Shown here in pieces: positions 31,447-34,588 of a stretch of 55,388 bases of DNA. The position numbers and the translations under genes are program-made. The notes under the pieces are model-generated. The model was not told the origin of the DNA, did not search any database, and saw only the letters and a list, made by a program, of their open reading frames with translations. The stretch comes from an uncultured Bacteroidota bacterium (GTDB lineage Bacteria > Bacteroidota > Bacteroidia > Flavobacteriales > Flavobacteriaceae), in NCBI GenBank assembly GCA_902584445.1, contig CACHZY010000011.1, forward strand, positions 1-55,388, given 5' to 3'. Numbering within the stretch: the first letter of the stretch is position 1; every line of letters starts with the position of its first letter.

Positions 31447-32293
31447 ACACAAAAGAAATAGTCGAATGCTTATTTGAGAATAGGGATCGAAGTGTAAAAT
31501 AACTTCCTTTTAGCGCTCCTATAAAAAAAGCAAGATTATTACCTTTATATTTTTCAGATAGAAAAGAAATGTAAAAAACATCAAGCCAAAGGGGGCTTTT
31601 TTTTAATAGTTTAAATCCAGCACTGAAAAACATTTTTTCCAAACCCTCTGGTGTAAAATGCCAAAGATGTCGAGGAACGTCTAACGCGGCCCAATTGTTT
31701 TTATAATGCAACCTATCGTGACTAGAAAAGTTAGGAACTGCTACAATTAAAACTCCTTTGCTAGTCAATAAATCATGGATCTTTGCTATAACTTCCTCAG
31801 GTTGAGGTAAATGCTCAAGGACATGCCATAAAGAAATGATATCAAAGGCTTTATTTGGAAGAGATTCTAATGAATTAAAAACTTTAAGTTTTTTTTTGGC
31901 ACATATTTCTAAAGCAGTAGTGTTTTTTTCAATTCCAAATACATTAAAGTTTTTTTTCTTCATGAAAGACAAGAAACTTCCAGCCCCACATCCAATATCT
32001 AACAACTTGTCCAAGGGTTTTACAAATGGTTTAAGTTGTTTGAATTTATAACGCAGCATTATTTTTCTAGCAAAGCCATAGAGAATATTGATTATAGATT
32101 TATTCTCTGTTTGATGAGAAATATACTTGTCAGATTGGTAGTAGCGGTTCAAATCTTTTACCTTTCCTAAATCAGTCCATGCTATCTTTTTTTGTTTGTC
32201 CCAATAAAGATTGAAGTATTCTTCTGACGCCAAATGATCTTTTACAGTATACAAGAAAGGATTTTTTATATTTTTCATAATATGGTTCCACAT
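31427..32293 (-). CDS. Class I SAM-dependent methyltransferase
   Basis: 288 residues. A variable N-terminal part (~1-95) precedes a Methyltransf_11/23-type core: motif [16 protein letters not shown] (~102-116), FGIEKN acidic strand, [19 protein letters not shown] and [32 protein letters not shown] follows. This family often modifies cell-surface glycan precursors or quinones; the substrate here is unknown. The start is ATG 32293 or ATG 32278 ([10 protein letters not shown]); the first would place a degenerate parS at the start codon. It lies 6 bp after mnmG. Confidence 0.82.
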
Positions 32294-32299
32294 GGAACA
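32284..32299. promoter_or_regulatory. Degenerate parS-like site between mnmG and the methyltransferase gene
   Basis: The 16-mer GGTTCCACATGGAACA differs from the parS form TGTTCCACGTGGAACA at two positions: the outer T and the central CG, which is CA. The inverted repeat GTTCCA/TGGAAC is perfect. It occupies exactly the space between the mnmG stop (32300) and the methyltransferase start (32293 or 32278). Confidence 0.5.
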
Positions 32300-34168
32300 T
32301 CACCTGCCCAGCTTAACTAAAAGGACACTAATGTCGCTAGGATTAATGCCGCTAATTCTTGAAGCCTGAGAGAGGTTTGCTGGTTTTATTTTATTTAATT
32401 TCTCTTTAGCTTCCTTAGATAAAGAAGCTAAAATGTCATAATCAAAACCTTCCGGAATCTTAATGTAATCAAGTCGATTAAGCTTTTCCGCATTTGCTGT
32501 TTCTTTTTGAATATATCCAGCGTATTTAATCTGTATTTCGGCCTGTTCTAAAATTTCACTGTTGAGCCTATGCTTTTCCAGATAAGAAGAAACCGCCTCA
32601 ATTGACATCATTTCGTATCGGGTAATATTTGGACGGGAAAATATTTTGCTTAGCTTATCTGACTGTTTAACCTTAGCGGAGTTTTTACTAATCAGTAGTG
32701 GATTGACCTCATTTACATCAAAACTTTGTGTCTTAAAAAAAGAAACTAATTCTTGTGTTTGGGCTGACTTTAACTCAACTGCTCTCATTCGTCCTTCACT
32801 CGCCAAGCCGAGATCAAAAGAAATTGGAGTAAGTCTTAAGTCTGCATTATCCTGCCTCAAAAGGGTTCGGTATTCCGCTCTTGAAGTAAACATACGGTAT
32901 GGCTCATCAGTTCCCTTCGTAATAAGATCGTCTATTAATACGCCAATATAGGCTTCATTCCTTTTTAAAATAAAAGGGGGCTTTTGGTTGAGCTTTAGGT
33001 GAGCATTAATTCCGGCCATAAGCCCCTGTGAAGCTGCCTCCTCATAGCCGGTAGTTCCATTTATTTGACCGGCGAAGAAAAGGCCATTGACCAGTTTAGT
33101 CTCAAGGCTATTTTTAAGCTGAGTGGGGGGGAAATAATCATATTCGATCGCATAACCAGGACGAAAGAATTTAACGTTTTCAAATCCCTTAACAGAACGT
33201 AAAGCCTTGTACTGAATATCCTCTGGTAGTGAAGTTGAAAAACCGTTAACGTATACCTCTACAGTATTCCATCCCTCTGGTTCAACAAATATTTGATGTC
33301 TTGATTTATCTGCAAATCGATTAATCTTATCCTCAATAGATGGACAATACCTTGGTCCTGTGCTTTGAATACTACCATTAAACATCGGTGAGCGATCAAA
33401 ACCTAAGCGCAGTAGATCATGAACGTCTGGACTAGTGTAAGTAATATGACAACTACGTTGTTCGGTTAAAAAAGATGTGTCTGTAAAACTAAACTTTGAT
33501 GGGTCAACGTCACCTGGCTGCTCTTCCATCAATTCATAATTAAGCGACCTTCCGTCTACACGTGGCGGTGTACCTGTTTTCATTCGACCTGATTCAAACC
33601 CAAGGTTTTCAAGTTTATTCGTGAGACCTGTTGCGGCTTTTTCACCAGCTCTGCCTCCGCCATAATTCTTCTCTCCAATATGGATTAAGCCATTTAGAAA
33701 TGTTCCGTTGGTAAGCACAACTGTTTTGGAATATATAGGAATCCCCAATGAAGTAACTAGCCCCTTAATTACTCCACCCTGTACGATTAAGTCTTGAATC
33801 ATATCCTGGTAAAAATCCAAATTAGGAGTTTGTTCGAGAGCATCGCGCCATTCTTTAGCAAACAACATTCTATCAGACTGAACCCTGGGACTCCACATTG
33901 CAGGTCCCTTAGATCGATTTAGCATTTTAAATTGAATGGCACTCTTGTCAGACACAATACCGCTATATCCGCCAATCGCATCAATCTCTCTTACTATCTG
34001 TCCTTTTGCAATTCCGCCCATAGCTGGGTTGCATGACATCTGGCCAATCGTTTGGAGATTCATCGTTATCAACAAGGTTTTTGAGCCTAGATTTGCAGCA
34101 GCGGCTGCAGCCTCAGCCCCAGCATGACCTCCTCCAACGACGACAACATCATATTCTCCCTCAAACAT
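32300..34168 (-). CDS. mnmG: tRNA uridine-5-carboxymethylaminomethyl modification enzyme MnmG (GidA)
   Basis: FAD- and folate-dependent enzyme that, with MnmE, makes the cmnm5U34 wobble modification. It has 622 residues. N-terminal VVVVGGGHAGAEAAAAAANLG (FAD site), then CNPAMGGIAKGQIVREIDA, TGTPPRVDGRSL, RPGYAIEYDYFPP, LFFAGQINGTTGYEEAA and the C-terminal MnmE-binding helices. It lies 3 bp after ybeY. parS-like sites sit directly upstream (34176-34191) and downstream (32284-32299). In many bacteria mnmG is near oriC, but mnmE, rsmG, parA and parB are not in this window. Confidence 0.98.
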   Translation of the reverse strand: MFEGEYDVVVVGGGHAGAEAAAAAANLGSKTLLITMNLQTIGQMSCNPAMGGIAKGQIVREIDAIGGYSGIVSDKSAIQFKMLNRSKGPAMWSPRVQSDRMLFAKEWRDALEQTPNLDFYQDMIQDLIVQGGVIKGLVTSLGIPIYSKTVVLTNGTFLNGLIHIGEKNYGGGRAGEKAATGLTNKLENLGFESGRMKTGTPPRVDGRSLNYELMEEQPGDVDPSKFSFTDTSFLTEQRSCHITYTSPDVHDLLRLGFDRSPMFNGSIQSTGPRYCPSIEDKINRFADKSRHQIFVEPEGWNTVEVYVNGFSTSLPEDIQYKALRSVKGFENVKFFRPGYAIEYDYFPPTQLKNSLETKLVNGLFFAGQINGTTGYEEAASQGLMAGINAHLKLNQKPPFILKRNEAYIGVLIDDLITKGTDEPYRMFTSRAEYRTLLRQDNADLRLTPISFDLGLASEGRMRAVELKSAQTQELVSFFKTQSFDVNEVNPLLISKNSAKVKQSDKLSKIFSRPNITRYEMMSIEAVSSYLEKHRLNSEILEQAEIQIKYAGYIQKETANAEKLNRLDYIKIPEGFDYDILASLSKEAKEKLNKIKPANLSQASRISGINPSDISVLLVKLGR

Positions 34169-34171
34169 ATT

Positions 34172-34588
34172 TTATTGTTTCACGTGGAACATTGCAATGC
34201 ATTCTTCTTCTTTAAGTCGCATAAATAATTTTTCGTCTGGACTTTTATCAGGATGACCAAAACAATGTAAAAGTGCATGCGAAAGAAGCCTAAGTGTCTC
34301 TTTTTCAACGCTTTGATTGTTTATTTTTGCATTTTGCTCAAGTGCATCATGTGAAATAAAGGCTTCCGCTGAAATTTCATTGTCTACAGAATAATCGAAG
34401 GTCAAAATATCAGTATCGTTGTCGTGATTTAGGTATTTTTGGTTCAATTCATAGAGCTTTCGGGCGTCAACAAAGTTATAATGAAGTTTTTGAATGATGA
34501 ATCCTTCTTTATTAGCTACCTTAACAAGCCATTCAGATAATTGTTTATTATCTAGGGTCAGAAAATCATTATGAAAGAATTGTATCAT
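34172..34588 (-). CDS. ybeY: Endoribonuclease YbeY (rRNA maturation factor)
   Basis: Zn-dependent endoribonuclease for 16S rRNA 3' maturation and ribosome quality control. It has 138 residues from the ATG at 34588 (MIQFFHNDF). LNQKYLNHDNDTDILTFDY and the metal motif HALLHCFGHPDKSPDE (H-x3-H-x5-H) are clear. An in-frame TTG at 34609 lies in the -7 box and is rejected. The last codons (MFHVKQ) are encoded by the parS site, so the DNA element shapes the C-terminus. Confidence 0.94.
   Translation of the reverse strand: MIQFFHNDFLTLDNKQLSEWLVKVANKEGFIIQKLHYNFVDARKLYELNQKYLNHDNDTDILTFDYSVDNEISAEAFISHDALEQNAKINNQSVEKETLRLLSHALLHCFGHPDKSPDEKLFMRLKEEECIAMFHVKQ
34176..34191. promoter_or_regulatory. 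parS-type ParB-binding site
   Basis: TGTTTCACGTGGAACA; its reverse complement TGTTCCACGTGAAACA is, as I recall it, identical to the parS in Bacillus subtilis spo0J and fits the pan-bacterial consensus TGTTnCACGTGAAACA. It overlaps the last codons of ybeY just before mnmG. ParB loads here for chromosome segregation. Confidence 0.85.

What the first reader, a model, noticed from the sequence alone, without database searches (positions are those of the whole stretch)
34176..34191. parS site in the last codons of ybeY, directly before mnmG
The sequence shows TGTTTCACGTGGAACA, whose reverse complement TGTTCCACGTGAAACA is a canonical bacterial parS. It is embedded in coding DNA, where it spells the ybeY C-terminal residues FHVKQ. 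ParB/Spo0J sites normally cluster near the replication origin, so this marks the window as origin-proximal (inference) and shows a segregation element that a gene-only annotation would miss.
Basis: partly seen in the sequence, partly recalled or inferred. Interest (0 to 1): 0.75.

Follow-up and report, generated by a model that had tools for sequence, protein, structure and literature searches.

The report
Origin-marking parS site beside mnmG
A short palindrome hidden in the last codons of one gene is very probably the docking site (parS) for the protein that pulls newly copied chromosomes apart, and most relatives examined keep such sites beside the same gene, near where replication seems to start.

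Summary
In detail: TGTTTCACGTGGAACA lies at 34176-34191 and is the only exact TGTTNCACGTGNAACA in the 1.70 Mb draft. It spells FHVK near the YbeY end, but selection acts on the DNA: the 16-mer is identical in 19 of 19 genus genomes with this junction assembled, and in other families sites lie outside ybeY.

Sites with at most 2 mismatches lie near mnmG in 166 of 184 pooled loci. In seven single-contig relatives 14 of 15 sites with at most 1 mismatch lie within 2.5 kb of mnmG, and mnmG is at or near the GC-skew minimum in 4 of 4 chromosomes sampled. The genome encodes ParA and a ParB with parS-type residues. Four of six Saprospirales searched lack the mnmG link but have clustered sites beside ybeY or thrC.

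Verdict: a chromosomal parS, a known kind; binding untested. Phylum-wide anchoring, recurrent CpG-transition cores and no ScpA found (0 of 12) are the interesting parts.

The parts
34176..34191 (.). parS site 1, exact consensus TGTTTCACGTGGAACA, overlapping the last codons of ybeY (FHVK plus parts of M and Q)
   Evidence: identical in 19 of 19 genus genomes with this junction assembled
32284..32299 (.). parS site 2, degenerate (GGTTCCACATGGAACA on the + strand: one outer base and one CpG core transition differ), starting one base past the mnmG stop codon
   Evidence: most genus relatives have nGTTCCACGTGGAACA at the same place
32300..34168 (-). mnmG (gidA), the gene bracketed by the two sites
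   Evidence: TIGR00136 841 bits; PF01134
34172..34609 (-). ybeY (rRNA maturation RNase); its 3' end carries site 1. The listed TTG start is that of the longest ORF; the in-frame ATG at 34588 looks likelier by eye
   Evidence: TIGR00043 70.8 bits; PF02130; sequence

Best explanation
The 16-mer is a chromosomal parS centromere site close to oriC. ParB, made from the parA-parB operon on another contig of this genome, binds it as a dimer, is loaded as a CTP-dependent sliding clamp that spreads over the mnmG region, and the complex is moved by ParA so that sister origins separate early. With a weaker partner site just past mnmG it forms the centromere of this chromosome. Shown here: the sequence, its conservation as DNA, the second site, the link to mnmG and, in relatives, to the GC-skew minimum, and the presence of ParA and of a ParB with parS-type residues. 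Inferred from the ParABS family: binding, clamp sliding, ParA transport. Loading of Smc-ScpAB is probably absent, because no ScpA was found.
For: Exact consensus, single in the draft. 19 of 19 genus genomes with the junction assembled keep the 16-mer while the flanks vary; the codons TTC CAC GTG AAA have probability 0.0058 given FHVK and window codon usage. 36 of 40 genomes (the window's own plus 39 relatives) hold a site with at most 1 mismatch, and each of the 36 has at least one beside mnmG; of the other four, G020 has no mnmG match in its assembly, G039 (0.3 Mb) has mnmG but no detectable ParB, and G029 and G035 have 2-mismatch sites beside mnmG. In total 81 forward matches against 9 of the reversed control in those 40 genomes. 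Wider sample: 64 of 69 loci with at most 2 mismatches within about 1.5 kb of mnmG, control 0 of 69; 69 of 80 named loci within 300 bases, control 1 of 80. Cumulative skew minimum against mnmG: 872 against 876 kb in G067 and 1456 against 1436-1438 kb in G026; G037 a broad minimum over samples at 426-852 kb, lowest at 710, against 749 kb; G035 between samples at 480 and 530 kb against 542 kb. ParB has PF02195, PF17762 and PF23552, and R173 and G201 by alignment with solved ParB and Noc chains.
Against: No binding data. The genome is a 69%-complete draft in 70 contigs; origin position was measured only in relatives, from 20-kb samples. G016 and G024 have sites but no ParB was detected in these incomplete assemblies. 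11 of 80 named loci and 5 of 69 sampled loci lack a site near mnmG. Four sites with at most 1 mismatch lie inside mnmG in the pooled set. Reversed-pattern matches occur: 5 in the seven single-contig genomes against 15 forward, places not listed. The ParB also scores best with the Noc model, below its cut-off. The window has one TTWTMCACA in 55 kb and no DnaA-box cluster.
Confidence: 0.93

Rival explanations
1. It is only coding sequence: YbeY needs FHVK near its C-terminus and the DNA match is a by-product.
For: FHVK is invariant in the genus rows.
Against: All 19 genus genomes with the junction use the same four codons; that choice has probability 0.0058 given FHVK and window codon usage (the genomes are related, so draws are not independent). 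In other families sites lie outside ybeY or only downstream of mnmG. A second site lies past the mnmG stop.
Confidence: 0.02
2. It acts in RNA, as a hairpin or terminator at the borders of mnmG.
For: The 16-mer is nearly self-complementary and lies at gene borders. Positions 5 and 12 are not independent (Fisher p 0.002 upstream, 0.0003 downstream), which shared ancestry or symmetry of the protein site could also cause.
Against: On the mnmG-sense strand the non-pairing combination C/A (70 sites) is commoner than the pairing T/G (48), beside 119 C/G and 86 T/A; the window's site 1 has C/A (a set with a few duplicate loci). No Rfam match there at gathering thresholds.
Confidence: 0.02
3. It is the site of another CACGTG-reading regulator that controls mnmG.
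For: Two sites bracket one gene about 1.9 kb apart in many taxa.
Against: Seven of 11 genomes without a site at mnmG have two or more sites close together elsewhere, beside ybeY or thrC in four Saprospirales. The consensus is that published for ParB, and the complete 0.3 Mb relative without detectable ParB has mnmG but no site.
Confidence: 0.02
4. It is a Noc binding site (NBS) rather than parS.
For: The ParB of this genome scores 234 bits with the Noc model TIGR04285, above TIGR00180 (165) though below the Noc cut-off of 315.
Against: The protein has R at 173 and G at 201, the parS type; the Noc chains have Q and R. The site has the parS bases at the two differing positions; the NBS letters are recalled.
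Confidence: 0.01

Closest known systems
Chromosomal parS of the ParABS system (consensus TGTTTCACGTGAAACA; Livny et al. 2007, seen only as cited in PMC10197239 and PMC7333895)
   Same: Sequence, clustering near the GC-skew minimum in relatives, ParA and ParB in the genome, ParB with parS-type residues.
   Different: One exact site plus one degenerate partner, bracketing mnmG; parAB on another contig, and 0.80, 1.18 and 0.17 Mb from mnmG in G037, G026 and G035; no ScpA found.
Ancestral origin gene cluster (gidA, gidB, parA, parB, yidC, rnpA, rpmH, dnaA, dnaN; passages of PMC2099444)
   Same: mnmG is gidA, listed there as an origin gene; here it lies with parS at or near the skew minimum of relatives.
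   Different: parAB is not in the neighbourhood; the neighbours are ybeY, a glutamyl-tRNA synthetase gene, a polymerase III delta' subunit-like gene and pgk.
parS clusters at the origin of gut bacteria including two Bacteroidetes (PMC10197239, passages and section 20)
   Same: Same phylum, parS clusters at the origin, no known condensin found.
   Different: The passages that I saw do not name mnmG; I did not search that paper for it.

Membership tests
chromosomal parS (ParABS) | 16-bp palindrome TGTTNCACGTGNAACA | tested here: met
   0 mismatches at 34176-34191
chromosomal parS (ParABS) | cognate ParB in the same genome | tested here: met
   TIGR00180 166 bits on contig C1; PF02195, PF17762, PF23552
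chromosomal parS (ParABS) | ParB carries parS-specificity residues R173 and G201 | tested here: met
   read by eye from alignments to solved ParB and Noc chains; criterion from passages of PMC7383237
chromosomal parS (ParABS) | ParA partner encoded | tested here: met
   ORF overlapping parB by 8 bases, PF13614 225 bits
chromosomal parS (ParABS) | lies near the replication origin | tested here: inconclusive
   met in four single-contig relatives by sampled GC skew; not measurable in the draft genome of the window
chromosomal parS (ParABS) | bound by ParB in vivo or in vitro | not testable with these tools
   needs ChIP-seq or EMSA
chromosomal parS (ParABS) | needed for origin segregation | not testable with these tools
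   needs mutants and microscopy
Smc-ScpAB loading site | Smc-ScpAB encoded | tested here: not met
   ScpA PF02616 in 0 of 12 genomes, control rings in 9 of 14; SMC TIGR02168 over cut-off in 0 of 12, with weak sub-cut-off matches in 11 of 12, control over cut-off in 10 of 14; ScpB and MksBEF not tested
Noc binding site (NBS) | protein with Q and R at positions 173 and 201 | tested here: not met
   R and G at these places

The most novel reading that the evidence does not exclude
In Bacteroidota and the other lineages of the same phylum sampled, parS sites at the borders of mnmG are an ancient, place-anchored centromere, a relic of the ancestral origin cluster that remained after parAB moved away. 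It works without Smc-ScpAB, so ParB at these sites either segregates origins with ParA alone or loads a still unknown chromosome-folding complex. The CpG transitions CACATG and CATGTG in the core form a working, perhaps weaker, class of parS.
Probability: 0.4. Interest if true: 0.65.

Novelty: new member of a known kind. Interest (0 to 1): 0.45.

Why it matters
parS beside mnmG is a simple marker for the origin region in fragmented Bacteroidota genomes, where according to a passage of PMC10197239 dnaA does not always mark the origin. It is a clear case of a centromere element kept inside coding DNA, and it points to a phylum in which ParB-parS function could be studied apart from Smc-ScpAB.

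Tried and rejected
DnaA boxes: the window holds one TTWTMCACA, so oriC was not located in it. Clusters of 3 or more in 300 bases occur in 5 of 80 named loci (Runella, Fibrivirga, Dyadobacter, Lunatimonas downstream of mnmG; Chitinophaga upstream); the motif is recalled and no shuffled control was run. GC skew inside the window shows no clean switch. RNA hairpin, other regulator, Noc site and pure coding constraint were rejected as set out under rivals. Two-mismatch matches elsewhere in the draft were not followed, except C11:32284.

Literature: searches listed no title or abstract start that names a parS-mnmG link in Bacteroidota; most listed papers were not opened. Livny et al. 2007 is not held and may report such positions. 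Of PMC10197239 I saw passages and section 20; of PMC2099444, PMC7333895 and PMC7383237 passages only.

Full report
OBSERVATION. The window carries TGTTTCACGTGGAACA at 34176-34191, the only exact match to TGTTNCACGTGNAACA in the 1,696,268-base draft, where base composition predicts 0.006. On the minus strand it overlaps the last codons of ybeY; three bases separate the ybeY stop (ending at 34172) from the mnmG start (34168).

SECOND SITE. At 32284-32299, one base past the mnmG stop codon, lies GGTTCCACATGGAACA with 2 mismatches. Alone it would pass as chance (4 matches within 3 mismatches against 1.83 expected). Most genus relatives have nGTTCCACGTGGAACA at this place, about 1890 bases from the first site; G016 and G006 differ by one base more or at a free position. 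So mnmG is bracketed by two sites, and the window's copy has one further core change.

CONSERVATION AS DNA. The genus has 22 genomes here, the window's included. In G006 and G014 the contig ends inside mnmG and in G020 no mnmG was found; in the other 19 the 16-mer is identical while the flanking bases vary. The codons used for FHVK have a joint probability of 0.0058 under window codon usage; the genomes are related, so this is not an independent draw per genome. In other families sites lie outside ybeY or only on the other side of mnmG.

BREADTH. Of 40 genomes (own plus 39 relatives), 36 have a site with at most 1 mismatch, 81 matches in all against 9 for the reversed pattern. Each of the 36 has at least one site beside mnmG. 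The other four: G020 has no mnmG match in its assembly; G039 (0.3 Mb) has mnmG but no detectable ParB; G029 and G035 have 2-mismatch sites beside mnmG. Among 80 named loci, the best by MnmG similarity of a capped scan, 69 have a site with at most 2 mismatches within 300 bases of mnmG: 49 of 50 that I grouped as Flavobacteriales from their titles, 20 of 23 others, 0 of 7 Saprospirales; reversed pattern 1 of 80. From a phylum-wide draw of 118 genomes including the own one, 117 had MnmG; I examined 70 of the 117 loci (30 given by the search, 40 chosen one per genus, three genera left out for space). Without the own locus, 64 of 69 have a site with at most 2 mismatches and 59 of 69 with at most 1 within about 1.5 kb of or inside mnmG; reversed control 0 of 69. 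Pooled (sets overlap; one duplicate and L075 left out), 184 loci give 166 with a site with at most 2 mismatches: 174 exact, 123 with one and 47 with two mismatches near mnmG, against 0, 0 and 1 for the control; inside mnmG 2 exact and 2 one-mismatch sites occur.

ORIGIN. Scans of seven single-contig relatives give 15 sites with at most 1 mismatch; 14 lie within 2.5 kb of mnmG, the exception being G037:1502291. G035 has none at that level. The reversed pattern gives 5 matches in the same seven genomes, places not listed (mnmG places). Sampled GC skew puts the cumulative minimum at 872 kb against mnmG at 876 kb in G067 and at 1456 kb against 1436-1438 kb in G026 (fine stretches inside coarse minima). 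In G037 the minimum is broad, samples at 426 to 852 kb being nearly equal and 710 kb the lowest, against 749 kb. In G035 it lies between samples at 480 and 530 kb, against 542 kb. The draft of the window cannot be tested this way.

PARTNERS. Contig C1 holds parA, parB, a small unassigned gene, dapB and a signal peptidase gene in a row. TIGR00180 ParB was found in 37 of 40 genomes, own included; G016, G024 and G039 were negative. Alignment with solved ParB and Noc chains shows R and G at the positions of R173 and G201, the parS-specific type by passages of PMC7383237; the Noc model TIGR04285 nevertheless scores higher than TIGR00180, below its cut-off. ParB lies 0.80, 1.18 and 0.17 Mb from mnmG in G037, G026 and G035. 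That parAB moved away from an ancestral origin cluster is inference.

NATURAL EXPERIMENT. I searched 11 genomes without a site at mnmG: 9 have a site with at most 1 mismatch, 7 of them two or more sites close together; the single G129 site has a CACTTG-type core and may be chance. Of six Saprospirales among them, four have clustered sites and two (G159, G161) none. In one of the four, two exact sites follow ybeY; in the other three, two or three sites lie at the end of a threonine synthase gene, one of them inside it. In all four the same gene, weakly like M1 peptidases, follows (67-75% identical). Three of the sites in G160 have the CACATG or CATGTG core. The likeliest reading is that the sites kept their chromosomal place when mnmG left (inference), so they do not serve mnmG.

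SITE VARIATION. Of 123 single-mismatch sites, 104 differ at position 1 or 16, 5 at positions 2, 3 or 15, and 14 in the central ACGT, 12 of these being CpG transitions. Runs of such sites occur in Kordia and a Flavobacterium and in a Saprospiraceae genome. The core change in the window's second site is therefore of a recurring and probably tolerated kind.

MECHANISM. By passages of the review PMC7333895, ParB nucleates on parS, spreads, interacts with ParA to move the origin region, and recruits Smc; the CTP-dependent sliding clamp is from recall and from abstract starts in the listing. Here ScpA was found in 0 of 12 genomes and SMC over its cut-off in 0 of 12, with weak matches in 11, in line with PMC10197239 section 20, which found no known condensin in two Bacteroidetes. 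ScpB and MksBEF were not tested.

VERDICT. A chromosomal parS by every sequence test available, origin proximity being inferred from relatives and binding untested; a new member of a known kind. The window most likely belongs to Flavobacteriaceae: the genome G063, labelled same family, holds the sequence of a named Flavobacterium record (L220 lies within L084).

Noticed in passing
window 32276-32293: The methyltransferase ORF start at 32293 (ATG) lies inside the degenerate parS and owes its ATG to the core change; the in-frame ATG at 32278 is the likelier start.
   Followed up: partly
L105, L082, L118, L331: Two to four parS-like sites in a row with CACATG or CATGTG cores in several lineages, suggesting that ParB tolerates CpG transitions.
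   Followed up: partly
L330-L333: In four Saprospirales genomes parS sites lie beside ybeY or thrC, followed by the same gene weakly like M1 peptidases, instead of mnmG.
   Followed up: yes
L130, L135, L141, L150, L136: Clusters of DnaA-box-like motifs within 5 kb of mnmG, possible oriC.
   Followed up: partly
G000 and 11 relatives: ScpA found in 0 of 12 genomes searched, so ParB probably does not load Smc-ScpAB here.
   Followed up: partly
L082, L151: Flavobacterium and Terrimonas loci with many parS-like sites spread over about 1 kb upstream of mnmG.
   Followed up: no
L075 (G002:C95): A second, diverged ybeY-mnmG copy with its own parS in one draft genome, possibly contamination.
   Followed up: no
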